Source: Anaerolineales bacterium (GTDB taxonomy: Bacteria > Chloroflexota > Anaerolineae > 4572-78 > J111). From it: a stretch of DNA of 21,796 bases. The stretch lies in contig JAAUSP010000057.1 of the NCBI GenBank assembly GCA_012032575.1, positions 1-21,796 on the forward strand. The letters run 5' to 3'. A program made the translations under genes and the position numbers. The notes beneath the pieces were generated by a model. It was not told the origin of the DNA and did not search any database. It saw only the letters and a program-made list of their open reading frames with translations. Of the stretch, positions 4,469 through 21,278 are shown piece after piece; position 1 is the first letter of the stretch; every line of letters starts with the position of its first letter.

Positions 4469-5300
4469 TCACACCCCGCTAAAGGCCGAGAAACCGCCGT
4501 CCACCGGCACGACGATTCCGGTGACAAACGCCGAAGCGGGCGAGAGCAGCCACATCATCGTCCCCAGTAAATCTTCGGCGGTCCCAAAACGGGCCATCGG
4601 CGTGTGAGAGATGATGCTTTGACCGCGGGCGGTCAATTCGCCGGTTTCTTTGTCGGTCAGCAAAAAGCGATTCTGCTCGGTCAAAACGAAGCCGGGGGCA
4701 ATGGCATTGACCCGGATGCGGGGCGAATATTCCTGGGCCATATGCACCGCCAGCCACTGCGTAAAATTACTCACCCCGGCTTTGGCCGCCGAATAAGCCG
4801 GGATGCGGGTCAGCGGGCGAAAGGCGTTCATCGAGGAAACATTGAGAATCACCCCCTCGCCCTGCTCGACCATATATTTGCCAAAACCTGGCTGGGCAGA
4901 ATCGTCCCCAGCAAATTAAGATCAAAAACAAAACGCAGGGCATCCGGCGGCAGGTCGAAAAAGGATTGGTTGGGATTGGTGGTGGCGCGAGGACTGTTCC
5001 CGCCCGCTCCGTTGATGAGGCAGTCAATCCGGCCAAACGTGTCCATAATTTTTCGGCGGCCTGCTGGAGAACTTCCGGGTCGAGCACATCGCCGTACACC
5101 ACGATAGCTTCGCCAACACTGGTGTCAAAGCGGTGCATCAGCCGTTCGGCCAGGGCCGGGTCGCGATCCACAATAGCCACGCTGGCCCCACAGCCAACCA
5201 GCGCGCAGGCCATCTCGCCCCCCAAAATTCCGGCTCCCCCGGTGATCACAATCGAGCGGCCGGTAAAATCGTACATTTTGCTTAATTCAGCTAAGTCCAT
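4469..5300 (-). CDS. uxuB: Fructuronate reductase-type short-chain dehydrogenase (D-mannonate oxidoreductase), two apparent frameshifts
   Basis: An SDR-fold enzyme that would interconvert D-fructuronate and D-mannonate with NAD(H). Pieces in three frames join into one ~277-residue protein, the length of the Bacillus YjmF type. The N-terminus has the Thr-Gly-Gly-Ala-Gly-Ile-Leu-Gly nucleotide motif (20-27), followed by Asn-Gly-Ala-Gly-Gly-Asn, catalytic Ser in Asn-Val-Ser-Ser, and Tyr-Ser-Ala-Ala-Lys. The Ser-Met-Asn-Ala-Phe-Arg-Pro-Leu-Thr and Asp-Gly-Gly-Phe-Ser-Ala-Phe-Ser-Gly-Val blocks fit the mannonate oxidoreductase group rather than generic SDRs. The frame is lost at an A-run in the gene (T5 on plus, 5049-5053) and again at a T-run (A4 on plus, 4883-4886). 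Restoring one base at each gives an uninterrupted protein. GGAG precedes the ATG. It follows uxaE, which supplies its substrate. Confidence 0.8.
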
Positions 5301-5347
5301 AATAGATCTCCAAGTTTAAGTTGCGCCCATAAGGGCCTTGAGCGATG

Positions 5348-5417
5348 TTGCGTCTTGCGTCTTCCGTTTAGTGTCTGACCACTGATCACTGACTACTGAT
5401 GACTGGCTACTGTCCAA
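5348..5417. repeat. Composite heptamer tandem array downstream of uxaE
   Basis: Ten consecutive 7-nt units: TTGCGTC, TTGCGTC, TTCCGTT, TAGTGTC, TGACCAC, TGATCAC, TGACTAC, TGATGAC, TGGCTAC, TGTCCAA. The first part resembles the GCGTNTT family at 8283-8345. The second (TGANNAC) reads CAGTNRT on the minus strand, like the short tandemly repeated repetitive heptamers known from cyanobacteria. The stop codon of uxaE (TAG, 5407-5409) lies inside the array. Confidence 0.8.
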
Positions 5418-6945
5418 ACGGGCTGAGATGTTTATCAAAATGCTTTTCGAGCATCTGGTAGTAGGTTTCTTCGTTGCCTCGCAGGGCCGCAAAGAAAGGT
5501 TCGCGGAAAGTAGGATGGGCCAGCACCGAGCCAAAAGTGACGTGCAGGACTTCCCGCCCGTGAAAATCATCGAGCAGGGTGGCCAGCTTGTCGTCCGGCC
5601 ACTGGGTGATGTCGGGCACTTTGGACGCCTCAGCGGAAACGTGATAGGTGGCCCGGTCGGTTGGGTAGCGATCCAGGGCAAAGGCGACAATCTCGCGGAA
5701 AAGGGCCGGGTTCAGCACGGCGATGGCTCGCAGCGCTTCCAGATAACTCGTCCCGGCGGTTTTGAGGTGGACCAATTCGCCGGCCACCCTGGCAGCGATG
5801 GGATAAATGCTGAATTTATCGGAGCCGGAGTGCAAACTGAGTTTGTACGGGCCGTAGGTTTTGGCCACGGCGAAATGGCGGGCAAAGGATTTTTCAAATT
5901 CGGCCAGGTCGCCCTTGTAATCCACGCCCTTCTCAAACTCGCCCACGTAACGCGGGGCCAGGCTGACCCATTTGACGCCCAGCCGCTTGAGTTCATGCAC
6001 AATGTAAACGTGCTCGGCCAGGGTGGTGATGGTTTCGGTTTCGTCCACACTCATCTCCAGTTCAAAAGGCAGGTCTCCCTTGCCTCGGCCAGGTGGCGGT
6101 ACATGCTGACCGTGTGGGCTACCGCTCGACCGTATTTGGCCGTCGCCCGAGCCAGTTCAACCGGGCTGATGGTCAGGCTGAAATCGCCCAGGTCAATGGG
6201 CTGGCCGGCCAGGCGGCGCTGCGTATCTTCGGGGTCGCTGTCGAGGACGTTCCAGGGCAGCGCTTCGATTTTGGGCTGTAGCTCGTCAATCGAGGCGGTG
6301 TTGGCGCTGTTGTCCACGTATTCGCCGGGATCAATGGTAAAAAAGGTATACCCGGCGGCCACACAGATATCAATATCGTGGGTCGTTTTCAGGTGGTCGG
6401 CGTCGGCCCCGAAGCCGTCACGCCAGCCTTCCTGAAAATGCCCCACATGGCCTCGTCCATCACCTGCTGGGGGGTGCGCCCGGTGCGGGCATTTTCGCGC
6501 ATGGACTGCTGGGCCAGGATGGGGGCCATCGTCGAGTGGCGAACAGCCCGGATATGGCCCGGCGTCGCCAGGCCCAGCCGGTCGCCGCAGCCAGCGGATT
6601 TGCGCAAGCCGAGTGGTTGGGCCACCAAAAAAGGCAGCACCGCCCGCAGCGCGGCGCGTTGGCCGGGGTGGTCGGACAGGTGGTCAGGGTCAGTTCCGTT
6701 CCGTCAACCGTGACAGATTTCGCCTGCCCGAAACCAGTCTCGCCGCTGACTGATAAAACGCCCAGATATTTGTCAGTGTCCTGTCGCCCCAAAAACAGCA
6801 ATTTTCCCTGAGCTACAGCGATCGAGCGGGAATAAACCGGCATCCCGCTGAGCGACTCCAACTCGACGGTCAGGGCCTTGGCCTCATTCTCCGGCGGGAC
6901 CGGGGCCAACTCATTTGCCTGAAGATACATTAATAAAGTCGTCAT
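5407..6945 (-). CDS. uxaE: Tagaturonate/fructuronate epimerase, three apparent frameshifts
   Basis: A UxaE-family enzyme that epimerises D-tagaturonate to D-fructuronate, as in Thermotoga. Four pieces in different frames join end to end into a ~513-residue protein. Recognisable family blocks are Gly-Cys-Gly-Asp-Arg-Leu-Gly-Leu-Ala-Thr-Pro-Gly-His, Met-Arg-Glu-Asn-Ala-Arg-Thr-Gly-Arg-Thr-Pro, Trp-Arg-Asp-Gly-Phe-Gly-Ala-Asp-Ala-Asp-His-Leu-Lys-Thr, Phe-Thr-Ile-Asp-Pro-Gly-Glu-Tyr-Val, and Ser-Leu-His-Ser-Gly-Ser-Asp-Lys-Phe. The breaks are near 6675-6695, at the A4 run 6435-6438, and near 6077-6087; adding one base at each restores the frame exactly. The start (ATG, 6943-6945) has AAGGA 12 nt upstream and is divergent from the GHMP kinase gene. 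It links tagaturonate from IolO to the SDR downstream. It is either a gene with sequencing errors or a young pseudogene. Confidence 0.85.
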
Positions 6946-6961
6946 GGCTTTAAATTCCTTT

Positions 6962-6989
6962 TTGTCTGCATAAAGAATGATACTATAAT
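6962..6989 (+). promoter_or_regulatory. Sigma70-type promoter for the GHMP kinase operon
   Basis: TTGTCT (6962-6967), a 16-bp spacer and a perfect TATAAT (6984-6989) lie 35 bp before the ATG at 7025, inside the 79-bp gap between divergent uxaE and the kinase gene. A GGAGG ribosome site is at 7016-7020. No convincing mirrored promoter for uxaE was identified on the minus strand, though TTGATT is present there. Confidence 0.65.
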
Positions 6990-7024
6990 CAAGGGGTTAT
7001 CCATTTTATGCTTTTGGAGGTTTT

Positions 7025-8275
7025 ATGTCCCACCCAGGTTCACCCTCGACGCCGCCTGTCCGCACGGCCCGCCCCGAAGCTGAACGCGTCGAGACTCTTG
7101 TGACTCAGTTGAAACGCTACCCCCAGGTAGACCCGGCTACCATCGGCGTGGTTCGAGCGCCGCTGCGCATCTGCCCGCTCGGCGCGCATATTGACCACCA
7201 ACTCGGCCAGGTCACCGGCATGACCATCAACCAATCCATTCTGATGGCTTTTGCGCCCACCACCGATAACACGGTTTACGTGGAGAGCCTGGATTTTCAG
7301 CCGCCCGTCGCCTTTAAGCTCAACGACGTGCCCGGTTACGCCCCGCGTGATTGGGGCAACTATCTTCGCGGGGCTGTGCTGGCCTTGCAGCAAACCCACC
7401 ATCTCCGGCACGGGCTGATCGGCATTGTGGATGGCGAGATGCCCATTGGCGGACTCAGCTCGTCGGCGGCGGTGACGATTGCTTATTTGCTGGCGCTCGA
7501 AGCGGTCAACCACCTGGAAGAGCCGCCGGAACGCAACGTGGCCCTGGTCCGTTTCACCGAAAACCAATACATCGGCCTCAATAACGGCATTCTCGACCAG
7601 TCGGTGATTCTTTTTAGCGAAACCGGCAGCCTGACTTCCATTGACTGCCAAAGCGTCGAGGTGGAGCAAATTCCCGGTCCCCACCCCAACGGCGCTTTTG
7701 AAATTCTGATTGTCTACTCCGGCTTGACCCGCGTGCTGGTCGGCACGGATTACAACAACCGCGTGGCCGAATGTCGCGAGGCGGCCAGCTTGCTGCTGAA
7801 CCACAATGGTCAGACTGCCTCGCCCGACCCTCGCCTGCGCCACGTCGCCCCGGATATTTTTGTTGCCGAAGGCGGACGTTTGCCGGCCAACCTCCACCGC
7901 CGCGCCACCCACTACTTTAGTGAAATGCAGCGCGTGTCCGAAGGGCTGTCGGCCTGGCGGGCCGGCGACCTGGCCCGTTTTGGCGCGCTGGTGTCCGAAT
8001 CGGGCGAGAGTTCGATCAAAAATTACGAGTGCGGCAGCCCGCACCTAATCACCTTGTACGAAACCCTGCGCGAGACGCCCGGTGTGTATGGCACCCGCTT
8101 CAGTGGCGCGGGATTTCGGGGCAACTGCCTGGCCCTGATTGACCCGGCAGCCCGCGAATCCATCGCCGAAGCCGTTCACCGCCGCTACCCGGCTGCCCAT
8201 CCCGACGAAGCCCCGGCCTACAGCATCCACTTTTGCCAGCCGGATGGGAGAGCGGGGTTGTGTTCAGTAGACTAA
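7025..8275 (+). CDS. Galacturonokinase-like GHMP sugar kinase
   Basis: A 416-residue GHMP-superfamily kinase of the galactokinase branch; these phosphorylate the anomeric C1 of a sugar with ATP. Motif 1, usually Gly-Glu-His-Thr-Asp-Tyr in galactokinase, is here Arg-Ile-Cys-Pro-Leu-Gly-Ala-His-Ile-Asp-His-Gln (48-59), the form I associate with plant galacturonic acid kinase. Motif 2 is Pro-Ile-Gly-Gly-Leu-Ser-Ser-Ser-Ala-Ala (140-149). The likely catalytic Asp is in Asn-Gly-Ile-Leu-Asp-Gln-Ser (Asp191). Motif 3 is Gly-Thr-Arg-Phe-Ser-Gly-Ala-Gly-Phe-Arg-Gly (356-366). It is followed by a sugar-1-phosphate nucleotidylyltransferase, so the pair would convert a free uronate to a UDP- or dTDP-uronate. 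Proximity to tagaturonate metabolism supports an acid substrate, but galactose or arabinose cannot be excluded. Confidence 0.8.
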   Translation: MSHPGSPSTPPVRTARPEAERVETLVTQLKRYPQVDPATIGVVRAPLRICPLGAHIDHQLGQVTGMTINQSILMAFAPTTDNTVYVESLDFQPPVAFKLNDVPGYAPRDWGNYLRGAVLALQQTHHLRHGLIGIVDGEMPIGGLSSSAAVTIAYLLALEAVNHLEEPPERNVALVRFTENQYIGLNNGILDQSVILFSETGSLTSIDCQSVEVEQIPGPHPNGAFEILIVYSGLTRVLVGTDYNNRVAECREAASLLLNHNGQTASPDPRLRHVAPDIFVAEGGRLPANLHRRATHYFSEMQRVSEGLSAWRAGDLARFGALVSESGESSIKNYECGSPHLITLYETLRETPGVYGTRFSGAGFRGNCLALIDPAARESIAEAVHRRYPAAHPDEAPAYSIHFCQPDGRAGLCSVD

Positions 8276-8285
8276 TCCCTATGAA

Positions 8286-8345
8286 AAACGTGTTGCGTAT
8301 TGCGTGTTGCGTAAATTAACGAAAGACGCAACACGCAACACGTTT
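8286..8345. repeat. Heptamer inverted repeat (CGTGTTG family)
   Basis: Left array CGTGTTG, CGTATTG, CGTGTTG, CGTAAAT (8289-8316). Right array ACGCAAC, ACGCAAC, ACGTTTC (8326-8346). Arms 8286-8305 and 8326-8345 pair over 20 bp with one mismatch. It lies between the kinase and the nucleotidylyltransferase, which run in the same direction. Confidence 0.85.
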
Positions 8346-8409
8346 CCCACCCAAAATAAACCCCGGAAGCACCTTATTTCATACAAAAAACCAATTTGGA
8401 GCAACTTAG

Positions 8410-9358
8410 ATGCAAGCCGTAATTTTAGCCGCCGGAAAAGGTTCTCGTCTCAATCCAATCACTTTAAACCGCACCAAAGCGATGGTTCCCATTCTGGGCA
8501 AGCCGATTGTCGAGCGGGTCATGGAGAGCCTGGCCCAGAACGGCATCGAGGATTTTGTCCTGGTTGTCAGCCGGGAAGACAACGAAGTCACCCGCTACTT
8601 TAAGGAACAGTCAACCTTGAAGGTGAAGCTGCAATTTGTGATCCAGCCGGAGCGACTGGGCATGGCCAACGCCCTCAGCCTGGCCGCGCCTTATCTGCAC
8701 AACAGCTTTATCCTGTCCGCCTGCGACAACCTGACCCCGACGGAACACGTGGCCGATTTGTTAAAAACGCATCACCAACAGGGGGCCAATGCTACCCTGA
8801 GCTTGATGCAAATTGACCGGGCGCTGGCCAGCCGCACCGGCATCATCGAGTGGTACGACGGGCAGATTTCCCGCATTGTCGAGAAACCTTCTCCCGCCGA
8901 CGCGCCCTCGGATATTGCCAGCCTGCCCCTGTACGTTTTCTCGCCCAAACTGCTGGCCTATTTGCCACAGGTCAAGCTGTCGCCGCGCGGCGAATATGAG
9001 CTGCAAGACGCCCTGCAAATGTTAATTGACCACGATGGCCGCGTGACCGGGTGCTCACCCCAGCCGGCTGCAATTGACCAACGCCGCCGATTTGCTGGCC
9101 CTCAATCGCCATTATCTGACCACCGGCGGCGATACGCCCCAGTTGGCCCCGCGCACCGTCGGCCAGCACACCCACCTGATTACCCCGCTGCGGATCGAAG
9201 AAGGCACCACCATCGGCCCCGGCTGCGTCATCGGCCCGCGTGTTTACATCGAGCGCAACTGCCGCATCGGTGCCGACGTGCTGATCAAAGACGCCGTCAT
9301 CCTGCGCGATACCGTTATCGAAGACGGGAAACAGGTGGTGGGGGAAGTGGTCTCGTGA
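8410..9358 (+). CDS. Sugar-1-phosphate nucleotidylyltransferase with C-terminal left-handed beta-helix, one frameshift site
   Basis: The enzyme transfers a nucleotide from NTP to a sugar-1-phosphate. The N-terminal Rossmann-like domain has the signature Leu-Ala-Ala-Gly-Lys-Gly-Ser-Arg-Leu-Asn-Pro...Lys-Ala-Met-Val-Pro-Ile-Leu-Gly-Lys-Pro (6-32) and a metal-binding Asp near 106 (Ala-Cys-Asp-Asn). The C-terminal ~60 residues show hexapeptide repeats of a left-handed beta-helix (Thr-Thr-Ile-Gly-Pro-Gly-Cys-Val-Ile-Gly-Pro). The frame changes between 9048 and 9064. Restoring one base in the G3 run and one in the C4 run gives a 316-residue protein continuing Val-Thr-Gly-Val-Leu-Thr-Pro-Ser-Arg-Leu-Gln-Leu-Thr; a one-base insertion error would also fit. 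The stop TGA (9356-9358) lies in a heptamer palindrome. Its partner is probably the upstream GHMP kinase. The nucleotide specificity is not readable. Confidence 0.8.
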
Positions 9359-9412
9359 TACGTGATGCGTGATTTTTTCATTTCTCACGCATCACGTATC
9401 ACGCATCACTAC
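9354..9412. repeat. Perfect heptamer inverted repeat supplying both convergent stop codons
   Basis: Left units TGATACG, TGATGCG, TGATTTT (9356-9376). Right units TCACGCA, TCACGTA, TCACGCA, TCACTAC (9385-9412). Arms 9354-9372 and 9385-9403 are exact reverse complements over 19 bp. The TGA inside the left units ends the nucleotidylyltransferase (9356-9358), and the TGA read from the right units on the minus strand ends iolO (9399-9401). It may also serve as a bidirectional terminator. Confidence 0.9.
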
Positions 9413-10220: not shown

Positions 10221-10228
10221 AAGCCTGT

Positions 10229-10731
10229 CTAAACTCCCTCAATTCTGAGTTGGACATCCGCTTCAAGCTGGACCACCACACAATCATTGGCGTAAACCCG
10301 CTCCGGCAGCACAATCAGCACATTGGCCGGCTGGTCGCTCAGGGTGAAAGGAGCATGATGCCACACCCCCGGCCTCAGGCTGACCAGGGTTCCCTGCGGA
10401 ACCCGGAACACCCGGATTTTGTCCAGAGGCACCTCGCCGTTGGGGGGAGTGGCCGGGCCGACATGAATGAGAATATCCTGGTCCAGCGGCAGCATCACCT
10501 CGCCCGTGGTCGAGTGATACTCGGTCACATCAATCACCGGCTCCCGTTTTTCGACCCGGCAGGTGGAGAAAGAAGGGATGGTATGTGACCCCAGCGTTTG
10601 CTGGACCATATCCCGGAAAAATTCAATCGGCGCGGCCCCGATTTTTTCAGTTTGGGGATTGATGTAATTGGCATAACTGCCAAAAGGCAAAATTTTTCCA
10701 CACTTAATTCTTCTATTTTTACAGTGCGCAT
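10229..10731 (-). CDS. AllA-like (ureidoglycolate lyase family) cupin, one apparent frameshift
   Basis: A ~167-residue protein with the ureidoglycolate lyase/hydrolase cupin layout. An N-terminal Glu-Lys-Phe-Leu-Pro-Phe-Gly-Ser-Tyr segment and a central beta-rich region are followed by Arg-Val-Phe-Arg-Val-Pro-Gln-Gly-Thr and Pro-Gly-Val-Trp-His-His-Ala-Pro-Phe, matching the AllA block ending in Val-Trp-His-His-Pro-Leu-Phe. The start ATG (10729-10731) follows an AGGAG. The frame breaks at a T4 run of the gene near 10688-10692, and one added T joins the N-terminus to the rest. A longer in-frame reading upstream, through the heptamer array, lacks any homology and is rejected. It is tightly coupled to iolO, so a role in inositol breakdown is more likely than purine degradation. 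No other purine genes are visible. Confidence 0.7.
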
Positions 10732-10766
10732 AGGATTCTCCTGATGGTGGGGTATTATTAATCCAA

Positions 10767-10820
10767 ACGTATTGCGTGTTGCGTGTTCCGTTTGCTTTAC
10801 CTCGCGTAAGGCGCAACATG
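10767..10820. repeat. Degenerate heptamer array upstream of the AllA-like gene
   Basis: Left units ACGTATT, GCGTGTT, GCGTGTT, CCGTTTG (10767-10794), then a decayed right side GCGTAAGGCGCAACATG. The right side pairs only partly with the left. It belongs to the same GCGTGTT family as 8286-8345 and 12693-12752 and looks like an eroded copy. Confidence 0.7.
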
Positions 10821-11523: not shown

Positions 11524-12658
11524 TTAAAACGTCGAGCGCTGCCCAATCATCGGCAGGGCGTAGACAGACTTCCAGCCGGGGCTTTGCGGCTCGCGCAGGA
11601 AGGGTTCCATTTCCTCGGCGGTGCGGAGGGTGATTTCCTCAACCGGCGGAACTTTGCCGGCGGGGAAGGCTTCCAGGATGTCGTCGTGGAGCAGGGTCAG
11701 GTAGCGCAGGATGGCCGCCAGAGGGCGCTTGGCTTTCTGGACGGTCGCATCGGCGGCGTTGCCGACCACCCCTTCGGGCGTGGCGGCGATTTCGATGGCA
11801 AAGTGACCTTCGCCTTCGGACCAGCGGCTGGCGACGATAGGGATCCACCGACTTGTCGAAGTGGCCTTCGGGCAGGTAGGATTTGCCCTGGGTGTTGACA
11901 GCATAATCCATATCCACCATGTCGGGGAAGAGGTACAGCCCCAGCGAGGTTTCGGCTTCGCAGGCGTGGACAAAGGTGGTCCCGTACTCGCCGCCGAACT
12001 TTTTCTCGCGGAAGAATTCGCGCACGGCCCGGTGCCAGTCAATCACCCGGAAGATGCCGGGCAGTTGGTAGCGCTTCTGGAGTTCCTGAATGGCCGACTC
12101 CAGCATCCACAGGTGGCCGTGGTTGTTGATCAAGATTTGTTTGCGCCAGCCATCGTTCCACAGGCCCAACATCACATCAACCAACATTTCACGGGCAATG
12201 TCTTCGCGAACGATAGAGGTAGCAGCCATCCCCATGTGGTGGAAGGGGTGCGCCCCAAAATTGAGCGGCGGCAGCGATAGGGAGCAGGGCGTGCCACGCT
12301 TGCCGGTGAAGCGGCGCACACCTTCGATAATCTGGCTGACAAACAGGGTGTCGGTGGCGGTGGGCAGGTGCAGACCGTGATTTTCGGTGCAGCCGATGGG
12401 CAGGAACAGGATGTCATTTTTGCGGCGCTCTTCGACCACTTTCCAGCGCACGGTGGTTTGAATATAAGAACCGGCTTTGCCCCACTCGACCGGCGACGGC
12501 ATGCCGTATTCGGCCAGGATCGCGTCAATCTGCTCGTCGCTGGCATCCCAAATCTCTTTTTTCATGCGGCCAACGCCGTTGTCCTCAAAAAACAGATCGG
12601 GGACGTTGGTTTCCAACAATCCTTCCGGGACCGGCATTTTGCCATTTGGGTTTGACAT
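11524..12658 (-). CDS. iolN: 3-dehydro-scyllo-inosose (diketo-inositol) hydrolase, creatininase family, one apparent frameshift
   Basis: A creatininase-fold metal hydrolase. In the Thermotoga-type inositol pathway the IolN member opens the ring of the doubly oxidised inositol to give 5-keto-L-gluconate. The metal-binding pattern is visible: Gly-Cys-Thr-Glu-Asn-His-Gly-Leu-His-Leu-Pro (89-99, Glu92, His94), Asp103, Asn-Asn-His-Gly-His (178-182), and His-Ala-Cys-Glu-Ala-Glu-Thr-Ser (231-238), the place of the creatininase His-Ala-Gly-Glu block. The frame shifts at a G3 run on plus (11840-11842). Removing one base gives a 377-residue protein continuing Val-Asp-Pro-Ile-Val-Ala-Ser-Arg-Trp. This is the one break in the window that looks like an insertion. 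AGGAG precedes the ATG at 12656-12658. It follows iolM with a 120-bp gap containing a heptamer palindrome. Confidence 0.8.
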
Positions 12659-12778: not shown

Positions 12779-13936
12779 TCAGTTCGGATACACCATCACT
12801 TTGCCATCCACCCGCTCGGTGCCTTTGATGATGGCGTCTACGGCTTTGTCTAATTGATAGCGGGCCGTAATGATCGGGCTGAGGTCCAGCCGGCCGGAAG
12901 CAACCATGCGAATGACATTGGGGAAGTTCTCGTCGCCGGAGTGACCCTGTGCCCCGTATACCTGCGCCCGGCGTACTTGCAAGGTTTCCAGGTACATGGG
13001 TACTTCTTTGGCGGCCCGGCCAATTTGCACAATCTTGCCGTTGATGGCGATGCTCTTGACCATCTCAGGGACAGTCAGGTGCGGCGCGCCGGCAGCTTCG
13101 ACGTAGAAGTTGAAGCCTTCGCCCTTGCTCAGGTCCATCAGCACTTCGGCAGCGCGCACGTCGCGCGGATCATAGACATAATCAGCGCCAATTTTCTTGG
13201 CTAACTCAAGTCGCTCTTTCGAGACGTCAAAGCTGACAATCTTGCCCGCGCCGGCAGCTTCGGCCAGACCCACTGCGGCCAGGCCAATGGGGCCAGCGCC
13301 AAAAATGCACACAAAGTGACCGGGCTTAAAGCCGCCCGCCCGCGAGAACATAGCGTTGTAAGATACACAGGTCGGCTCGGTCAAGGCAGCCACATCGTAG
13401 GCTTTCTTTTCATCGCCAAAGCGCTCGGCAATGGCGTTGATCTTCCAGGCAAACTTCGCGCCAATGGCGAGATAGTTGGCAAAGCCGCCGTCAGTGGTGA
13501 AGCCAATCTCTTCCAGGTTGGAGCAATGGTTGGGGAAGCCGTTGCGGCAGGGGGTGCAGTGGCCGCACCAGATCATCTCTTCGACGGTGACCATGTCGCC
13601 CACTTTCAAATCTTTCACATCTTTGCCCACTTCAACCACTTTGCCGGATAGTTCGTGGCCGGTGATGGAAGGGAATTTGGTCAGGCCGGGATAAAGCATG
13701 TAGCCGTCGGAATCGGTTTCATAAAAGTGCAGGTCAGACCCGCACACGCCGCAGGCCTGAACTTGCAGCAGAATTTGGTCGGGGTTGATTTTGGGGTCGG
13801 GCCGTTCGGTCACTTCCAATTTGGGATAGCGCCAGATACTGCTGCCGGTGATAGCCTTGCCGGTCTCCTCTTCCCAGTCAGACACATGGTAATCGTGTCG
13901 GGGTTCCCACTTTGCATTTAAAACTAAGCCTTTCAT
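12779..13936 (-). CDS. iolM: scyllo-Inosose dehydrogenase, zinc-dependent alcohol dehydrogenase family
   Basis: A 385-residue medium-chain dehydrogenase that would oxidise 2-keto-myo-inositol at a second position with NAD+. It matches the Thermotoga IolM type at its unusual N-terminus (Leu-Val-Leu-Asn-Ala-Lys-Trp, 4-10), an extension before the usual zinc-ADH start. Catalytic zinc residues are Cys65 and His94-Glu95 in Ala-Cys-Gly-Val-Cys-Gly-Ser-Asp and Gly-His-Glu-Leu. The structural zinc loop has Cys124, Cys127, Cys130 and Cys138 (Cys-Gly-His-Cys-Thr-Pro-Cys...Asn-His-Cys). The Rossmann motif is Gly-Ala-Gly-Pro-Ile-Gly-Leu-Ala-Ala. The Arg-Arg-Ala-Gln-Val-Tyr-Gly-Ala-Gln-Gly-His-Ser-Gly block also fits IolM. 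GGAGG lies 8 nt before the ATG. The upstream promoter overlaps a perfect LacI-type operator. Confidence 0.85.
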   Translation of the reverse strand: MKGLVLNAKWEPRHDYHVSDWEEETGKAITGSSIWRYPKLEVTERPDPKINPDQILLQVQACGVCGSDLHFYETDSDGYMLYPGLTKFPSITGHELSGKVVEVGKDVKDLKVGDMVTVEEMIWCGHCTPCRNGFPNHCSNLEEIGFTTDGGFANYLAIGAKFAWKINAIAERFGDEKKAYDVAALTEPTCVSYNAMFSRAGGFKPGHFVCIFGAGPIGLAAVGLAEAAGAGKIVSFDVSKERLELAKKIGADYVYDPRDVRAAEVLMDLSKGEGFNFYVEAAGAPHLTVPEMVKSIAINGKIVQIGRAAKEVPMYLETLQVRRAQVYGAQGHSGDENFPNVIRMVASGRLDLSPIITARYQLDKAVDAIIKGTERVDGKVMVYPN

Positions 13937-14026: not shown

Positions 14027-14046
14027 TTATGCACACGTGTGCATAA
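14027..14046. promoter_or_regulatory. LacI-family operator at the iolM promoter
   Basis: TTATGCACACGTGTGCATAA is a perfect 20-bp palindrome with the central CG expected of LacI-family sites. It overlaps the edge of the putative -10 box of the iolM promoter and extends downstream, so binding would block initiation. The only other copy found is upstream of the LacI gene (21305-21324). Confidence 0.85.
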
Positions 14047-14167: not shown

Positions 14168-15187
14168 TCAACCGGCCAGGGGCAATTCGACCGGACGGGC
14201 TTCGTGGTAAGATTGGGTGGCGGCCAGCGCAATTTCCAGGGCAGCACGGGCATCCTGACCACTGACCACCGGCGCTTGATCGGCCCGAACCCGCTCGACA
14301 AAATCCTGGGCCTGGGCCAGATAGGCCTCGCCAAAACGCTCCATCAGATAGGGAACCATATCGTGGCTGATGCCCTGGCGGGTCAGCACCAGCACCGGTG
14401 TTTGCCGGTAATAGCCAATCTGCACCCCGCCGGTTGTGCCCAGCACTTCCGTCCTGATGTCGTAACCATACAAGGCATTGCGGCTAACCTCGACATTGCC
14501 CAGGGTGCCGTTTTTGAACAGCATATTGACCACCGCATTGTCAATATCGCCCACCGTGTTGAGTTGGGGAAAGGCCAGCGTGCCGCCCTCGGTGTAAACC
14601 CGCTTGACCTCATCGCCCATCAGCCAGCGTCCCAGATCAAAATCGTGGATGGCCATATCCAGGATCAGGCCGCCGCTGACGCTGGGCCGGGCGTATTCCA
14701 GGTCGGGGCAGAAGGGATCCCGCCCAATGGATTTGAATGTGACTGGCTGACCGATAGCTCCGACCTCGATCTGTTTTTGGGCGGCCACGTAGCCGGCATC
14801 AAAGCGGCGCATAAAACCGGCCTGAAACATCACCCCATTTTCGGCAATTGCCGCCAGCATGGCGTCGGTATCTTCAAGGGTCAAAGCCACCGGCTTTTCG
14901 CAGAAGATAGCTTTGCCCGCCTCCGCCGCCGCGATGACCACTTCACGGTGGGTGCTGGTGGGCGAAATAACAAAAACTGCCTTGATCTCCGGGTTAGCCA
15001 AAACATCCCGATAATCGGTTGACCAGAAAACGCCTGTTAACTCCGCCGCAAAAGCCCGCGCCCGTTCAGCCATAGCATCGGCCACCGCCACAATCCTGGC
15101 CTGGGGAATCCGTCCGGCCAAATGCCGGGCATACACCTGCCCCATTCGACCCAACCCAATGATGCCCACCGGCAGTTTAGCGTTCAT
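14168..15187 (-). CDS. Gfo/Idh/MocA oxidoreductase, inositol 2-dehydrogenase-like (paralogue 1)
   Basis: A 339-residue NAD(P)-dependent dehydrogenase. Its Rossmann motif is Gly-Leu-Gly-Arg-Met-Gly (11-16). Catalytic Lys98 is in Cys-Glu-Lys-Pro-Val, and Asp177 and His181 are in Leu-Asp-Met-Ala-Ile-His-Asp-Phe-Asp, with the same spacing as Lys97/Asp172/His176 of Bacillus IolG. The protein resembles the second IolG-like gene (19221-20234) along its length but diverges in the substrate-facing loop (Arg-Asp-Pro-Phe-Cys-Pro-Asp-Leu-Glu-Tyr). It could oxidise a different inositol isomer, such as scyllo- or chiro-inositol, or provide an isomerisation step. I prefer the Met at 15187, which has GGAG upstream; an ATG 27 nt further upstream lacks homology and sits across that site. 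It lies after the pentapeptide gene and before the iolM operator. Confidence 0.8.
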   Translation of the reverse strand: MNAKLPVGIIGLGRMGQVYARHLAGRIPQARIVAVADAMAERARAFAAELTGVFWSTDYRDVLANPEIKAVFVISPTSTHREVVIAAAEAGKAIFCEKPVALTLEDTDAMLAAIAENGVMFQAGFMRRFDAGYVAAQKQIEVGAIGQPVTFKSIGRDPFCPDLEYARPSVSGGLILDMAIHDFDLGRWLMGDEVKRVYTEGGTLAFPQLNTVGDIDNAVVNMLFKNGTLGNVEVSRNALYGYDIRTEVLGTTGGVQIGYYRQTPVLVLTRQGISHDMVPYLMERFGEAYLAQAQDFVERVRADQAPVVSGQDARAALEIALAATQSYHEARPVELPLAG

Positions 15188-15217: not shown

Positions 15218-15281
15218 GGAACTGAGGGAACTGAGGGAATTAAAGAGTCATTCAGTGCCCTCAATCCCTTTAGTTCCCTAT
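15218..15281. repeat. Nonamer inverted repeat (GGGAACTGA family)
   Basis: Left: GGAACTGAG, GGAACTGAG, GGAATTAAA (15218-15244). Right, on the minus strand: AGGGAACTA, AAGGGATTG, AGGGCACTG (about 15253-15280). The period is 9 nt rather than 7. The right side begins immediately after the stop codon of the pentapeptide gene. It is the same family as 17819-17869. Confidence 0.75.
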
Positions 15282-15844
15282 TCATAAATATCCCCGTTGG
15301 GCTTCATCGCCCCGCGCAGATGGACGTTGCTCAAATCGGCCCCTTCCAGGTTGGCCTCGAACAGGTTGGCCCCGCGCAGGTGCGCTCCTTCCAGGGTCAC
15401 ATTAGCCAGGTTAGCCCCCTTGAGCACCGCTTTGAGCAGTATGACTTCGGTGAGATTAGCCTGGCTCAGGTTGGCTTCGGTTAGATGCGCTTCCCGTAAG
15501 TTAACCTCAAGCAGATTGGCCTGTTCCAAATTGGCATAATTAAGCTGTCCCTGGCGCAAATTGGCTTTGGTCAGGTTAGCCTGGCTCAAATTAGCGTAAC
15601 TCAAGTTGGCCTCGCTGAGATTGGCCTCGGTCAGCAAGGCACCGGTCAAATTGGCGCCGGCCAGGTTGGCACCGGCCAGGTTGGCACCGGCCAGATTGGC
15701 CTGGCTCAGATTAGCTTCACTCAAATCAGCGCCGCTCAGGTTGGCACCTTTCAAATAAGCGCCGCTCAGGTCACAACCGGCCAGCCAGAGCGGTCTGGGC
15801 CGGTTCAGCAAATCATAGATTTGCGCGGATGTTAACTCGGCCAT
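15278..15844 (-). CDS. Pentapeptide-repeat protein
   Basis: A 188-residue protein made almost entirely of Ala-[Asn/Asp]-Leu-x-x pentapeptides from about residue 22 to 180, which fold as a right-handed quadrilateral beta-helix. A short N-terminal Leu-Thr-Ser-Ala-Gln-Ile-Tyr-Asp-Leu-Leu segment (4-13) precedes it. Near-identical Gly-Ala-Asn-Leu-Ala units (about residues 50-67) show recent repeat expansion, reflected as a DNA tandem repeat around 15650-15710. It begins 12 nt after the transporter ATPase stop and has a GGGGGA ribosome site, so it is co-transcribed with the importer. The biochemical role is unknown; relatives act as scaffolds or DNA mimics, and nothing here indicates which. Confidence 0.85.
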   Translation of the reverse strand: MAELTSAQIYDLLNRPRPLWLAGCDLSGAYLKGANLSGADLSEANLSQANLAGANLAGANLAGANLTGALLTEANLSEANLSYANLSQANLTKANLRQGQLNYANLEQANLLEVNLREAHLTEANLSQANLTEVILLKAVLKGANLANVTLEGAHLRGANLFEANLEGADLSNVHLRGAMKPNGDIYE

Positions 15845-15856
15845 GCCGTTTTCCCC

Positions 15857-16750
15857 CTATTCTTCCAGACCATGCGAGAATACTTCTTCGCTTTCCTCCA
15901 ATGCCTGGGCCAGATGCCGTTCAGCTTGGCCTGCCCCCGCCCCGACCTCTGAGTCGGTGCGAGCAAACTCGGCCAGCTCATGGCTCAAAGCGTCTAACTC
16001 ATCAGCGCCAGACATCATTCTCACCATCTCGTCACGGGCTAACTCGGCTTTGGTAAAGGTGCCAAAAGTGCGGCCCCGCTTCAGGATGGTAAATCTATCG
16101 CCTACAGCATAAGCGTGGTGCGGATTGTGCGTAATCAGAATGACCCCCAAATTTCGAGACTTCGCCTGGGCGACATAACGGAGTACGGTCCCGGCCTGCT
16201 TGACTCCCAGTGCCGCCGTTGGCTCATCCAAAATTAACACCTTCGCCCCAAAATAAACAGCACGGGCAATAGCCACACATTGACGCTCACCGCCGGAAAG
16301 GGTGCCGACGGGTTGGGAGGGGTCGCGCACATCAATCCCCATTTTGAGCATCTCTTCCCGCGCCACGCGGTCAGAAAATTTGACATCATAGCGTTTGAAC
16401 GGCCCCCAGCCTTCTCTGACCGGCTCCGAACCGAGGAAGAAGTTGCGCGAGATACTCATCAGCGGGATCATCGCCAGGTCTTGATACACGGTGGCAATAC
16501 CCCGATCCAGTGCGTCGCGGGGAGAATTGAAATGAACTTCCCGACCTTCAACCAGATATTGGCCTTCGTCGGGCCGATGAACCCCGGAGAGGGTCTTGAT
16601 AAGCGTAGACTTGCCCGCGCCGTTATCACCCAACAAACACATCACTTCGCCGGCCCGCACCGCCATCGAAACATCGCTGAGGGCGATGACGCTGCCAAAA
16701 TATTTGGAAATATTTCTGATCTCAATGAGAGGCGTTTCATTTTGACTCAT
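15857..16750 (-). CDS. ABC sugar importer ATPase, single-domain FrcA-like, with C-terminal extension
   Basis: A 297-residue ATP-binding subunit with one nucleotide-binding domain, unlike the two-domain RbsA type. Walker A is Gly-Asp-Asn-Gly-Ala-Gly-Lys-Ser-Thr (41-49), the Q-loop is Gln90, the signature is Leu-Ser-Gly-Gly-Glu (151-155), Walker B is Val-Leu-Ile-Leu-Asp-Glu-Pro (171-177), and the switch His is His208 (Ile-Thr-His-Asn). After the usual end of the domain (Met-Met-Ser-Gly, about 248) there is an acidic, probably helical tail of ~50 residues. The ATG overlaps the permease stop in ATGA (16747-16750), so the two are translationally coupled. With the neighbouring inositol dehydrogenases, myo-inositol is the likely cargo. 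Confidence 0.9.
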
Positions 16751-17799
16751 CTGCGTGATGCCTCCGCTCGTCGTCTGATGTAATTGTTAACCAACACCGC
16801 GATGACCAGCATCGCCCCCATAAAAACCTGGAACCAGTCGGCATCAACCCCGGCAAAAACAATGCCCTGGCGGACCATGCCAAAGATGAGCGCGCCCAGA
16901 GCCGCCCCAATGACCGAGCCGTAACCGCCGGTCAACAAATTGCCGCCGATGACCGCGCCAATAATGGCCAGAAACTCCTGCTGCTCGCCGCGCAGCACGT
17001 CGGCCGATTTGACGCTGGAAACCTGGATGGTTGCCACCAGCCAGGCGGCAAAGGCGGTAGTCATAAACAGGCCGATTTTTAGCCGGTCAACCGGCACGCC
17101 CACATTGCGGGCAGCCTCGGCCGCGCCGCCGGCCCCAAAAATCCAGTTGCCTACCTGCGTCCGCAGCAAAAGCCACGTCCCCACAGCAATGATGCCAAAC
17201 CACCACAAGATGGAAACTGAGAAATTAGCCCCGGCAATCCGAATATCATAAGCAAAAATGGCTCTCAGAATTTCGTAGCCGGCCAGGTCATCCAGGCCCC
17301 CCACCTGGGTGCGGCCGGTAATCATGCGGGTGAAACCGATGGTCGCCCCGCGCACAATGAATAAACTGCCCAAAGTAATGATAAAAGAGGGCAGCTTGGT
17401 TTTGACAACCATGTAGCCATTGAAGAAACCAACTGCCAGAGACAGCACCAGGGCTATCAGCGCGGCTACCGGCAAAGACAGTCCCAATTCCGTACCGAGG
17501 ATGGCAATTGTTACCCCGGCCATGCCGATGATTGAGCCGATGGACAGATCGAACTCACCCCCTATCATCAGTAGGGCCACCGCTACCGATAGAATCCCCA
17601 GGTGCGATGAAACCTCCAAATAGCTGGCTGTACCCCTTATGCTTAAGAACCCTCTGGAAGCGGCGATGGCAAAGAAGAGCCAAACTACAATAGCTCCGGC
17701 CAGCGCACCAAATTCAGGCCGGCTGAACAGGCGTTTCGTGAGGCTCGCGTGGACCAGACGCTCGTCTTGCCTTTCTGTTGCGACACTTGTTGATGCCAT
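16747..17799 (-). CDS. ABC sugar importer permease, RbsC family
   Basis: A 350-residue membrane protein of the ribose/inositol-type permease family with about 9-10 helices. The conserved [11 protein letters not shown] segment (79-89) and [14 protein letters not shown] near the C-terminus (about 291-304) identify the family. GGAGA lies before the ATG. It forms the membrane channel for the binding protein encoded upstream and pairs with the ATPase encoded downstream. A terminator-like hairpin in the 126-bp gap upstream probably lowers its expression relative to the binding protein. Confidence 0.9.
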
Positions 17800-17818
17800 G
17801 TAACTCTCCTTAAAAGCA

Positions 17819-17869: not shown

Positions 17870-17883
17870 TCTCAATTTTTTAC

Positions 17884-17917
17884 AAAGGCCGGGGTATTAT
17901 GCAACACCCCGGCCTTT
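17884..17917 (-). terminator. Hairpin terminator/attenuator after the binding-protein gene
   Basis: AAAGGCCGGGGT (17884-17895) and ACCCCGGCCTTT (17906-17917) form a 12-bp GC-rich stem followed by T-rich sequence, 8 bp after the binding-protein stop. Such hairpins commonly let the binding protein be made in excess over the membrane subunits. Confidence 0.8.
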
Positions 17918-17925
17918 TCGATCAA

Positions 17926-19029: not shown

Positions 19030-19075
19030 TGTAATCTCCTCCACATTGAACAAAGTTTGTTTTTTGATGAACTTT

Positions 19076-19103
19076 GAGATTTCCGCTGAAGCCAGGAAAT
19101 CCC
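19076..19103. promoter_or_regulatory. Leader hairpin upstream of the binding-protein gene
   Basis: GAGATTTCC (19076-19084) and GGAAATCCC (19095-19103) can pair over 9 bp (one G-U on the minus-strand RNA) about 50 nt before the binding-protein start, within the 191-bp gap after iolG. Further upstream in the leader an AGAGGAGG sequence on the minus strand lacks a following start codon. No clear promoter was found here. Confidence 0.3.
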
Positions 19104-19220
19104 CGCTACCAAGAGTTTACTTTCTCAATCAAGTTGGCAGTTTTTGTGCCGTTCCTCCTCTCTTTGTCATCGAATTGAAAAACAGCAAGTTTTCGACTAA
19201 CTATAACCTACTGTTTGTTC

Positions 19221-20234
19221 TCAAATTTCGCTCAATTTTACCGGCCGGTTTTCCCGATACGATTTTCCGGCAGCCAGGCCCATCACCACCGGAATCCGGC
19301 CATCCAGGCCGGTAACCGGCGGCGCAGTATCTTGCGCGATGGCTGAGACAAAAGCTTTCATCTCGGCCACATAAGCTTCGGTGTAGCGTTCCAGGAAGAA
19401 ATAGAGCGGCAAGGCTGACTGAACACCCTCGGCATTGCTGTAAACGGCATTATGAGGGGTATTGTTGGCTACCACAATCACCCCGTCCGAACCAAACACC
19501 TCCACCCGCTGGTCGTATCCATAGACGGCCCGGCGGCTGTTATCAATGGTTCCAATCGCGCCGTTAGCGTAGCGCAGCGTCACCATAGCGGTATCAATAT
19601 CACCGGCTTGCCCAATGGCCGGGTCAACCAGCACGGCCCCGGCAGCAAAAATTTCAGTCACCTCGCTGCCGATCAGGTAACGGGCCATATCAAAATCGTG
19701 GATGGTCATATCGAGGAAGATGCCGCCGGAAACTTTGACGTACTCAAGCGGTGGCGGGGCGGGGTCGCGGCTGCTAATGCGGACCAGGTGAGGTGCGCCG
19801 ATTTTGCCCGCAGCGACCATATCGCGTGCCTGTTTGAAGTTGGGGTCAAAGCGGCGATTGAAACCGATTTGCAATTTCACCCCAGACTGTTCAACCGCGG
19901 CCAGCGCCGCATCAATAACCTTCAGGTCAAGCGCAATAGGTTTTTCACAAAAGATGTGTTTGCCGGCGGCGGCGGCTTCGCTGATGAATTGGGCGTGGGT
20001 ATCGGTGCTGGAGCAGATGATAACCGCTTCGATATCCGGGTTATCCAAAATAGCTCGATGATCTTTGCCGGCGGTGGGGATATTAAAATCGGCGGCGCAT
20101 TTTTGGGCAGCTTCTAAAAAAACATCCGAAACAGCCAAAACCTGCACTTCAGGAATACGATACGCCAGGTTTTCGGCGTGGACACGGCCAATTCGACCGG
20201 CGCCAATAATACCAACGTTGATCTTCGCAGTCAT
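19221..20234 (-). CDS. iolG: myo-Inositol 2-dehydrogenase (Gfo/Idh/MocA family, paralogue 2)
   Basis: A 337-residue NAD-dependent dehydrogenase that would oxidise myo-inositol to 2-keto-myo-inositol (scyllo-inosose), the first pathway step. The nucleotide motif Gly-Ala-Gly-Arg-Ile-Gly (11-16) is at the N-terminus. Lys98 in Cys-Glu-Lys-Pro, Asp175 and His179 in Leu-Asp-Met-Thr-Ile-His-Asp-Phe-Asp reproduce the catalytic set of Bacillus IolG. Asn-Arg-Arg-Phe-Asp-Pro (126-131) is also typical. I choose ATG 20232-20234 because GGAGG (20246-20250) is 11 nt upstream; the TTG three codons earlier is only 2 nt from that site. It directly follows the LacI gene and precedes the importer, forming a regulator-enzyme-importer operon. 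Confidence 0.85.
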   Translation of the reverse strand: MTAKINVGIIGAGRIGRVHAENLAYRIPEVQVLAVSDVFLEAAQKCAADFNIPTAGKDHRAILDNPDIEAVIICSSTDTHAQFISEAAAAGKHIFCEKPIALDLKVIDAALAAVEQSGVKLQIGFNRRFDPNFKQARDMVAAGKIGAPHLVRISSRDPAPPPLEYVKVSGGIFLDMTIHDFDMARYLIGSEVTEIFAAGAVLVDPAIGQAGDIDTAMVTLRYANGAIGTIDNSRRAVYGYDQRVEVFGSDGVIVVANNTPHNAVYSNAEGVQSALPLYFFLERYTEAYVAEMKAFVSAIAQDTAPPVTGLDGRIPVVMGLAAGKSYRENRPVKLSEI

Positions 20235-20273
20235 CTCTGACAAACCCTCCTTTGGGAAATTTACAGGCGCGTT

Positions 20274-21278
20274 TTATGGGTTTACGTTTTGTTGGGTCGA
20301 CTCACGTACCATCAAGTCACACGGCAGAATTTGGTCCTGCACATCTTGTCCTTCAAGCAGTTCCAGAGTCATGGTCATCGCCAGTTGTCCAAGTTTGAAG
20401 CGAGGTTGATGGATCGTGGTGAGGGAAGGAGTAGTATACAAGGCTGGTTCAATATCGTCAAAACCAATGATACTCAACTCCTGGGGTACGGCGAGGCCCT
20501 GTTGATGACACGCCAGGAGCAGCCCAATAGCGATCAAATCATTGTAACAGAAAACAGCCGTAGCCTGGGCAGCCAGCATTGTTTCCAGACCGGCCCGGCC
20601 CCGTTCCAAATCACTACCGGCTTCCGGCGAGACAATCAGCATCGGATCGGAAGTAAGGCCGGCTTGAGTCAAGGCGACACTGTAACCGGCCAGACGCTGG
20701 CCATTCGACTTGGGGCGGTCGGATGCGCCAATGTAGCCAATCCGGCGGTGACCCAGCCGCAACAGATGTTCCGCCGCCAACTGCGCCCCCTGAAAATTGT
20801 CTACCGCTACCGAATACAGGAATTCGCCCTCTTCCTGGTTATTAATCAGCACAATCGGTACTTTTATCTGGTCCAGTTGCGAGCTGTATAAACTCCCCAC
20901 CCGCGAAGAGGTGACGATGATGGCATCTACCCGGCGGCGCTGAAAAGTTTCAACCACCGCCATTTCTTGCTCAGGATTGTTGTGCGAGGTGTTCAGGAAG
21001 ATGCTGTAACCGGCTACCTGAGCAATTTGTTCGGCCCCCTCAACCACCTGGGCAATAAAAGGGTCAGCGATAGTCGTAACAACCATACCGATGGTTTGGG
21101 TACGCCGGGAGAGCAAACTTTGGGCCACCGCGCTGGGGATATAGCCCATTTGCCGGGCCAATTGCTGGATGCGTTCGGTTGTTTCAAAGCTAATAGCTGG
21201 ATTACCGTTGAGCGCCCGTGAGACGGTGGTGTGTGATACGCCGGCAATTTTGGCAATATCCTTGATCGTAACCGGCAC
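20274..21278 (-). CDS. LacI-family transcriptional repressor, probable inositol regulator
   Basis: A 334-residue regulator. The N-terminal helix-turn-helix (Ile-Lys-Asp-Ile-Ala-Lys-Ile-Ala-Gly-Val-Ser-His-Thr-Thr-Val-Ser-Arg-Ala-Leu-Asn, 5-24) and hinge helix (Pro-Ser-Ala-Val-Ala-Gln-Ser-Leu, 48-55) are standard. The rest is a type I periplasmic-binding-like sensor domain (Ile-Gly-Met-Val-Val at 63 to Ile-Gly-Phe-Asp-Asp near 270). The start is GTG (21276-21278) with GGAGGGG before it. A palindromic operator lies 27 bp upstream, directly after the promoter, so it is probably autoregulated. The same palindrome at iolM gives it the two inositol transcription units as targets. The effector is inferred to be inositol or an early keto-inositol. 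Thermotoga IolR is not assumed to be related. Confidence 0.88.
   Translation of the reverse strand: MPVTIKDIAKIAGVSHTTVSRALNGNPAISFETTERIQQLARQMGYIPSAVAQSLLSRRTQTIGMVVTTIADPFIAQVVEGAEQIAQVAGYSIFLNTSHNNPEQEMAVVETFQRRRVDAIIVTSSRVGSLYSSQLDQIKVPIVLINNQEEGEFLYSVAVDNFQGAQLAAEHLLRLGHRRIGYIGASDRPKSNGQRLAGYSVALTQAGLTSDPMLIVSPEAGSDLERGRAGLETMLAAQATAVFCYNDLIAIGLLLACHQQGLAVPQELSIIGFDDIEPALYTTPSLTTIHQPRFKLGQLAMTMTLELLEGQDVQDQILPCDLMVRESTQQNVNP

What the first reader, a model, noticed from the sequence alone, without database searches (positions are those of the whole stretch)
4469..21278. Thermotoga-type inositol pathway with a uronate exit branch in one locus
The window encodes an inositol-type importer, two IolG-like dehydrogenases, IolM, IolN, IolO, then UxaE and a fructuronate reductase. 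Each enzyme's product is the next one's substrate: inositol, keto-inositol, diketo-inositol, 5-keto-L-gluconate, tagaturonate, fructuronate, mannonate. The family assignments are seen in sequence; the pathway is established for Thermotoga maritima; its presence and extension in what looks like a Chloroflexota genome is my inference. It differs from the classical Bacillus iolBCDE route, none of whose genes are visible.
Basis: partly seen in the sequence, partly recalled or inferred. Interest (0 to 1): 0.75.

Follow-up and report, generated by a model that had tools for sequence, protein, structure and literature searches.

The report
Inositol-to-gluconate breakdown locus in Chloroflexota
One stretch of DNA from an uncultured Chloroflexota bacterium carries genes that probably import an inositol sugar and convert it, by a route known from Thermotoga maritima, into ordinary sugar acids; the route is known, and what this study adds is its packaging here and a likely nickel-enzyme last step.

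Summary
IolM, IolO and both IolGs pass NCBI's curated cut-offs; IolN passes in the intact orthologue of the syntenic Anaerolineales MAG L001; UxaE matches its Pfam family. IolN, UxaE, the reductase and a nucleotidyltransferase are frame-broken in this contig, but dN/dS of 0.06-0.13 favours contig error or very recent damage. The route is the Thermotoga maritima one, so not new biochemistry.

(1) The gene after the reductase (2979-4250) is a LarA-family nickel-pincer enzyme closest to T. maritima GntE (D-mannonate/D-gluconate epimerase). Orthologues occur in 9 of 9 iol-bearing genomes and adjoin 6-phosphogluconate dehydrogenase in 4 genomes, so the exit is probably gluconate. (2) A palindrome precedes lacI and iolM; its 16-bp core occurs at exactly two places, both here, in 3 of 3 genomes searched. 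(3) It does not precede uxaE here, so co-regulation of that branch is unproven in this window, although relatives have single co-directional clusters. IolD and IolE reach cut-off in 0 of 9 genomes. Substrate and all reactions are inferred.

The parts
20274..21278 (-). LacI-family regulator, probable local repressor
   Evidence: LacI and Peripla_BP_3 Pfam; LacI genes 47-79% identical to the L001 copy at iolM loci of relatives
21306..21323 (.). palindromic operator-like site about 28 bp upstream of lacI
   Evidence: TATGCACACGTGTGCGTA, 1 mismatch; 2 matches in the window at up to 3 mismatches, 0.01 expected
19221..20243 (-). IolG1, inositol 2-dehydrogenase
   Evidence: TIGR04380 483.2 bits over 355; best PDB 3ezy 373.6 bits
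17926..19053 (-). ABC importer substrate-binding protein
   Evidence: NF052284 rhizopine SBP 358.6 bits, cut-off 420 not reached; best PDB 4ru1
16747..17799 (-). ABC importer permease
   Evidence: PF02653
15857..16750 (-). ABC importer ATPase, 297 aa
   Evidence: matches about the first half of YtfR/AraG-type models of about 500 positions
15278..15844 (-). pentapeptide-repeat protein, role unknown
   Evidence: PF00805; also after the ATPase in L001, L002, L003
14168..15214 (-). IolG2, second inositol dehydrogenase-like protein
   Evidence: TIGR04380 365.5 bits over 355
14027..14046 (.). perfect 20-bp palindrome about 91 bp upstream of iolM
   Evidence: TTATGCACACGTGTGCATAA; its 16-bp core at two places per genome in 3 of 3 genomes, all at this locus
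12779..13936 (-). IolM, scyllo-inosose 3-dehydrogenase
   Evidence: NF041097 545.7 bits over 450
11524..12658 (-). IolN, 3-dehydro-scyllo-inosose hydrolase; one frame break
   Evidence: NF041098; intact L001 orthologue 312.8 over 245; break
10229..10819 (-). cupin/ureidoglycolate-lyase-like ORF between iolN and iolO, role unknown
   Evidence: PF04115 33.7 bits (cut-off 23), PF16161 just below cut-off; relative in 1 of 34 loci, L002
9399..10220 (-). IolO, 5-keto-L-gluconate epimerase
   Evidence: NF041099 340.7 bits over 300; best PDB TM_0416 (2zvr) 232 bits
5407..6945 (-). UxaE, tagaturonate/fructuronate epimerase; at least three frame breaks
   Evidence: PF16257; breaks; L001 orthologue matches PDB 9lhu 387 bits
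4469..5300 (-). SDR-family fructuronate reductase (D-mannonate oxidoreductase subfamily); two frame breaks
   Evidence: NF006132; breaks
2979..4250 (-). LarA-family nickel-pincer epimerase, probable D-mannonate to D-gluconate (GntE-like)
   Evidence: best PDB 4nar 227.4 bits; cofactor and catalytic residues kept; orthologues in 9 of 9 iol genomes

Best explanation
This is a catabolic locus for myo-inositol or a close cyclitol. An ABC importer brings it in; IolG oxidises it to 2-keto-inositol; IolM oxidises again to a diketo-inositol; IolN opens the ring to 5-keto-L-gluconate; IolO epimerises to D-tagaturonate; UxaE to D-fructuronate; the SDR reduces it to D-mannonate. The LarA-family enzyme, using a nickel-pincer cofactor, then probably inverts C2 to give D-gluconate, which after phosphorylation enters the oxidative pentose phosphate pathway through 6-phosphogluconate dehydrogenase. 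A local LacI repressor probably binds the two palindromes, before lacI-iolG-importer and before iolMNO. Shown here: family membership, synteny, palindrome conservation, co-occurrence and purifying selection. Inferred: every reaction, the substrate, repressor-operator binding and the gluconate exit.
For: Curated equivalog hits. Synteny with L001, L002 and L005. In L007 lacI-uxaE-iolM-iolG-importer-iolN-iolO-SDR-larAH are all on one strand, and in L077 iolG-iolM-iolN-SDR-HAD-larAH-gnd-PPi-PFK-uxaE-PfkB-iolO likewise. The LarA homologue keeps the seven GntE2 cofactor/catalytic positions that I checked, plus the Glu and Trp of the group 18-20 signature. Orthologues in 9 of 9 iol genomes, next to gnd in G007, G008, G009 and G200; gnd also lies in iol loci L009, L073 and L074. 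UxuA absent from 5 of 9 genomes including both closest; ManD over cut-off in 0 of 9; LarC cofactor gene in 7 of 9. In 35 other LarA-orthologue loci of the phylum sample an SDR relative is near in 16, gnd in 4, uxaE in 2; in 5 control loci of a more distant LarA group none. Palindrome: 25 sites in 21 of 34 loci against a mean of 0.03 for 59 shuffled palindromes.
Against: No activity is known for these proteins. The LarA homologue is only 35% identical to GntE2 and two substrate-side residues differ (G286 to A, N348 to G); it is far under the cut-off of its nearest NCBIfam model (201.4 of 500). No LarC was found in G003 and G008, though both have the LarA homologue. ManD matches below cut-off exist in G002, G004 and G006 (best 414 of 550 bits). 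18 of the 35 other LarA loci had none of gnd, uxaE, SDR or HAD nearby. No gluconokinase was recognised in the window, and FGGY hits in 9 genomes stay under the GntK cut-off. The palindrome is missing before uxaE in this window. In the phylum sample 4 of 9 IolN genomes lack a close LarA homologue.
Confidence: 0.74

Rival explanations
1. The pathway ends at KDG: mannonate is dehydrated by UxuA or ManD encoded elsewhere, and the LarA homologue does something unrelated.
For: UxuA family hits in 4 of 9 iol genomes, strong in G005; ManD matches below cut-off in 3 of 9; the T. maritima control genome also rings for UxuA.
Against: No UxuA match in G001, G002, G007, G008, G009; ManD over cut-off in 0 of 9; the LarA homologue follows the reductase in L001, L002, L005 and L007 and adjoins gnd in G007, G008, G009 and G200.
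Confidence: 0.15
2. The uxaE-SDR-larAH cassette is a separate galacturonate module that merely lies next to an inositol operon.
For: It has no copy of the palindrome here and is separated from iolO by opposite-strand genes; UxaC, which feeds galacturonate in, matches in 6 of 9 genomes; in G007 and G009 the cassette lies on another contig than iolM, beside a different LacI gene.
Against: uxaE lies within 10 kb of iolM in 9 of 34 loci against about 0.14 expected for one copy per 5-Mb genome, and in L007, L008, L018, L022, L023 and L077 it is co-directional within the iol cluster.
Confidence: 0.15
3. The real substrate is not myo-inositol but another cyclitol such as scyllo-inositol, an inosamine (rhizopine) or an inositol derivative.
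For: The binding protein is nearest to a rhizopine-binding family but below its cut-off; two IolG paralogues are present.
Against: IolG1 scores far over the inositol 2-dehydrogenase cut-off and is closest to PDB 3ezy (that 3ezy is the T. maritima IolG is recalled). No aminotransferase was recognised among the ORFs scanned.
Confidence: 0.25
4. The locus is decaying: IolN, UxaE and the reductase are pseudogenes.
For: At least seven frame breaks in four genes.
Against: dN/dS against L001 is 0.061 (IolN), 0.127 (UxaE), 0.099 (SDR), 0.086 (NTase), within or next to the range of the ten unbroken genes (0.041-0.126); a nucleotidyltransferase that is not part of the pathway is hit too. These values reflect the past and cannot exclude very recent damage.
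Confidence: 0.07

Closest known systems
Thermotoga maritima inositol pathway (Rodionova et al. 2013; paper not held, known here from passages)
   Same: [quoted passage not shown] That IolG, IolM, IolN and IolO carry these steps there is recalled, and agrees with the NCBIfam names.
   Different: LacI regulator here, ROK-family IolR there; two IolGs in the window; no PfkB-family kinase recognised in the window (T. maritima has TM0415), although PfkB genes adjoin iolO in L077 and L079. Importers were not compared by sequence.
Thermotoga maritima galacturonate locus (gnd, uxaE, uxaD, gntE, gntK; PMC3750489, passages)
   Same: UxaE, a fructuronate reductase and a GntE-like LarA homologue; gnd too in relatives.
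   Different: There these genes are in a pectin locus under UxaR; here they adjoin the inositol genes. Whether the two reductases belong to one family was not compared.
GntE2/LarAH20 of T. maritima, D-gluconate 2-epimerase (PMC7583248, passages)
   Same: Closest solved structure (4nar); cofactor, catalytic and part of the signature residues kept.
   Different: 35% identity; best NCBIfam match is 'group 18', proposed but not shown to be hexonate epimerases, far below that model's cut-off.
Bacillus subtilis iolBCDE route
   Same: Starts with IolG.
   Different: IolD and IolE over cut-off in 0 of 9 related genomes.
Luteolibacter L-glucose pathway (PMC12632266, passages)
   Same: 5-keto-L-gluconate is epimerised to D-tagaturonate.
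   Different: Enters from L-glucose by LguA and LguD; the passages seen name no IolM or IolN.

Membership tests
T. maritima-type inositol pathway | IolG equivalog | tested here: met
   483.2 and 365.5 bits over 355
T. maritima-type inositol pathway | IolM equivalog | tested here: met
   545.7 over 450
T. maritima-type inositol pathway | IolN equivalog | tested here: met
   met by the intact L001 orthologue, 312.8 over 245; the broken piece in the window falls short, 213.3
T. maritima-type inositol pathway | IolO equivalog | tested here: met
   340.7 over 300
T. maritima-type inositol pathway | activity on keto-inositols | not testable with these tools
   needs purified enzymes
UxaE tagaturonate/fructuronate epimerase | match over most of the protein | tested here: met
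   two pieces match PF16257 in the window; intact L001 orthologue matches 9lhu over residues 36-521 of 523
GntE (LarA-family hexonate epimerase) | nickel-pincer ligands (GntE2 R41, K164, H180, named in PMC7583248) and catalytic residues (H154, K287 implied there by E155/S156 and G286; D38, H73 from my alignment) | tested here: met
   all seven identical in the window, L001, L002, L005 and L007
GntE (LarA-family hexonate epimerase) | curated cut-off of the nearest model NF052594 | tested here: not met
   201.4 of 500 bits
GntE (LarA-family hexonate epimerase) | cofactor biosynthesis gene larC in the genome | tested here: inconclusive
   7 of 9 related genomes; none found in G003 and G008; larB and larE not searched
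Classical iolBCDE pathway | IolD and IolE over cut-off | tested here: not met
   0 of 9 genomes for each; IolB and IolC were not searched

The most novel reading that the evidence does not exclude
In Chloroflexota the inositol route is packaged to run straight into the oxidative pentose phosphate pathway: the locus joins IolGMNO to UxaE, a fructuronate reductase and a nickel-pincer mannonate/gluconate epimerase of an untested LarA subgroup (with gnd in some relatives), so that many proteins now named lactate racemase would be hexonate epimerases.
Probability: 0.6. Interest if true: 0.5.

Novelty: new member of a known kind. Interest (0 to 1): 0.4.

Why it matters
It extends a pathway characterised in one thermophile to uncultured Chloroflexota, offers a testable substrate for an uncharacterised LarA subgroup (where a source gives a name among the 120 relatives listed, it is mostly 'lactate racemase' or DUF2088), and supplies a conserved operator-like motif by which the regulon can be found.

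Tried and rejected
Rfam search of the window at gathering threshold: 0 matches. The tRNA-Val call at 14498-14592 lies inside iolG2 on the same strand and is probably spurious. I considered the conserved ~300-aa gene between SDR and larAH in L077, L080 and L081 (and near larAH in L079 and L082) as a missing gluconokinase; the copies scanned matched no NCBIfam (E 1e-40) or Pfam family (E 1e-8), but its motifs look HAD-phosphatase-like (my reading), so the idea was dropped; it was not found in the window by tblastn. GHMP kinase plus nucleotidyltransferase (7025-9372): below the galactokinase cut-off and on the opposite strand; left out of the pathway. No structure was predicted. Literature: searches listed no paper that I recognised, from titles and abstract starts, as describing this pathway in Chloroflexota; the library is open-licence PMC only and the two primary T. 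maritima papers are not held, so absence from print is not claimed.
Full report
OBSERVATION. The pathway genes lie on the minus strand in the order stated. NCBIfam confirms IolM (545.7 bits, cut-off 450), IolO (340.7, 300), IolG1 (483.2, 355) and IolG2 (365.5, 355, a narrow pass). IolN is split by a frame break; the piece scores 213.3 of 245, but the intact orthologue in L001 scores 312.8. UxaE is in pieces that match PF16257, and the intact L001 orthologue matches solved tagaturonate/fructuronate epimerases over residues 36-521 of 523. The reductase belongs to NCBI's 'D-mannonate oxidoreductase' SDR subfamily (371.2 over 281 for L001). The importer is only broadly placed: its binding protein is nearest to a rhizopine-binding family but below that cut-off (358.6 of 420).

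ORIGIN AND FRAME BREAKS. No whole genome is held for the window. L001, an Anaerolineales MAG, aligns with 18197 of 21796 window bases at 82-90% identity in the same gene order, which makes a Chloroflexota origin secure. tblastn with the L001 proteins shows one break in IolN, one in the nucleotidyltransferase, at least three in UxaE and two in the SDR. dN/dS against L001 is 0.041-0.127 in the 14 genes measured; the four broken ones have 0.061, 0.086, 0.127 and 0.099. Error in the contig or very recent damage is therefore more likely than old decay; reads would decide.

At 2979-4250 a LarA-family protein (Lar_N) follows the reductase. Its nearest solved structure is 4nar (227.4 bits; next best 38.4), which Desguin et al. 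2020 identify as T. maritima GntE2, a D-mannonate/D-gluconate 2-epimerase (PMC7583248, passages). On an alignment with the window, L001, L002, L005 and L007, GntE2's R41, K164, H180, H154 and K287, plus D38 and H73, are unchanged; the loop Glu and the Trp that belong to the group 18-20 signature are kept; S156 is V (allowed in those groups), G286 is A and N348 is G. The best NCBIfam match is 'group 18 putative hexonate epimerase', at 201.4 of 500 bits, so membership in that model fails; the protein looks like a sister subgroup. No LarA tree was built.

GENOME CONTEXT OF THAT GENE. Nine MAG genomes with iol loci, of the 34 loci found, were searched. The LarA orthologue is in 9 of 9 (45-94% identity). 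LarC is in 7 of 9 (not in G003, G008). UxuA matches in 4 of 9 and not in G001, G002, G007, G008 and G009. ManD reaches its cut-off in 0 of 9, with weaker matches in G002, G004 and G006. In G007, G008 and G009 the LarA orthologue is directly beside a gnd relative (57-69% identical to the G200 copy); in G200 the neighbour is a curated Gnd (726.1 over 413), followed by a PPi-dependent phosphofructokinase. In G008 a PPi-PFK and a transketolase follow. gnd is also in the fetched stretch of iol loci L009, L073 and L074, and L073 and L074 have gnd beside an SDR but no larAH, so gnd linkage is not only through larAH. FGGY kinases are numerous but none reaches the GntK cut-off. Together this favours mannonate to gluconate to 6-phosphogluconate over mannonate to KDG. 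UxaC matches in 6 of 9 genomes, so the cassette may also serve galacturonate.

BACKGROUND RATES. In 400 Chloroflexota genomes IolN exceeds its cut-off in 9; weaker, creatininase-like matches bring the total with any match to 202. A close LarA homologue (over 420 bits) is in 62 (counted by hand, tested); 5 of the 9 IolN genomes have it against 57 of 391 others (one-sided Fisher p 0.006; relatedness not corrected). I then fetched 40 LarA loci from that sample: 35 of those 57, picked by hand for room on the contig and not all that had room, and 5 controls of the 19 genomes with a more distant LarA (32-34% identical). In the fetched stretch (17 kb, shorter for a few) an SDR relative was found in 16 of 35, gnd in 4, uxaE in 2, the HAD gene in 1; 18 of 35 had none of these four; the controls had 0 of 5. 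In a separate clustering of ORFs within 5 kb, the SDR group was upstream on the same strand in 13 of 14 cases.

NEIGHBOURHOODS. Of 34 loci found with IolM, by identity thresholds that I set, IolN is near in 24, IolO in 18, UxaE in 9, SDR in 4 and LarAH in 4; of the 18 with more than 5 kb on both sides, 13, 11, 5, 4 and 4. Many contigs are short, so these are lower bounds. L007 holds lacI, uxaE, iolM, iolG, the importer, iolN, iolO, SDR and larAH on one strand within about 14 kb. L077 (G200) holds iolG, iolM, iolN, SDR, HAD, larAH, gnd, PPi-PFK, uxaE, a PfkB kinase and iolO on one strand. Some IolM-like genes (for example in L015, L019, L020, L031) have no IolN nearby, so IolM alone does not prove the route.

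OPERATOR. A 20-bp palindrome, TTATGCACACGTGTGCATAA, lies about 91 bp before iolM (14027-14046), and an imperfect copy lies about 28 bp before lacI. For the 18-bp core at up to 3 mismatches the window has 2 matches against 0.01 expected. In the three whole genomes searched (G001, G002, G003; 16-bp core, up to 1 mismatch) it occurs at exactly two places each, both at this locus; the reversed control pattern has no match. In 34 loci there are 25 sites in 21 loci at up to 2 mismatches, 23 of them with lacI or iolM as the next assigned gene, against a mean of 0.03 for 59 shuffled palindromes. None is before uxaE in the window, L001, L002 or L005, and L007 has none at up to 2 mismatches. In L008, L018, L022 and L023 the site precedes a co-directional run that includes uxaE. 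A LacI protein binding it is inference from position and co-conservation.

KNOWN OR NEW. The intermediates to tagaturonate are those of the published T. maritima scheme (passages), and T. maritima also has uxaE, uxaD, gntE, gntK and gnd, in its pectin locus. So this is a new member of a known pathway. New in what I examined: the joined locus in Chloroflexota, the likely GntE-like exit by an untested LarA subgroup, and the operator-like motif. In T. maritima itself inositol did not support growth in the cited study, so even there the physiological role is open.

Noticed in passing
window 7025-9372 (+): GHMP kinase (galactokinase-like, 178.6 of 226.65 bits) and a sugar-1-phosphate nucleotidyltransferase (one frame break) lie opposite to and between iolO and uxaE; conserved in L001, L002, L005, nucleotidyltransferase also in L012. 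Possibly a sugar or uronate salvage pair.
   Followed up: partly
window 15278-15844 (-): Pentapeptide-repeat protein after the importer ATPase, also in L001, L002 and L003. In L005, L007, L024 and L032 another protein with a HExxH-like motif (my reading; the L007 copy has no Pfam match) follows the ATPase.
   Followed up: partly
window 15857-16750 (-): The importer ATPase is a 297-aa protein that matches about half of the roughly 500-position sugar-importer ATPase models.
   Followed up: no
window 10229-10819 (-): Cupin/ureidoglycolate-lyase-like ORF between iolN and iolO, shared with L002 but not found in L001.
   Followed up: partly
L077:11241-12164, L079:5875-6798, L080:11775-12686, L081:11586-12560: Conserved ~300-aa HAD-like protein (my reading of motifs; no Pfam or NCBIfam match in the copies scanned) next to the LarA homologue.
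   Followed up: partly
L022, L023, L029, L015: A second zinc alcohol dehydrogenase (30-33% identical to IolM) near IolM, in L022 and L023 with a metallo-beta-lactamase-fold protein between: a possible variant of the route.
   Followed up: no
L073, L074: iol loci with uxaE, SDR and gnd but no LarA homologue: either another mannonate epimerase or another exit.
   Followed up: no
L015, L019, L020, L031: Loci with a 56-68% identical IolM but no IolN nearby; a different ring-opening step or another pathway is possible.
   Followed up: no
window 14498-14592 (-): ARAGORN tRNA-Val call inside the iolG2 coding sequence, probably spurious.
   Followed up: no
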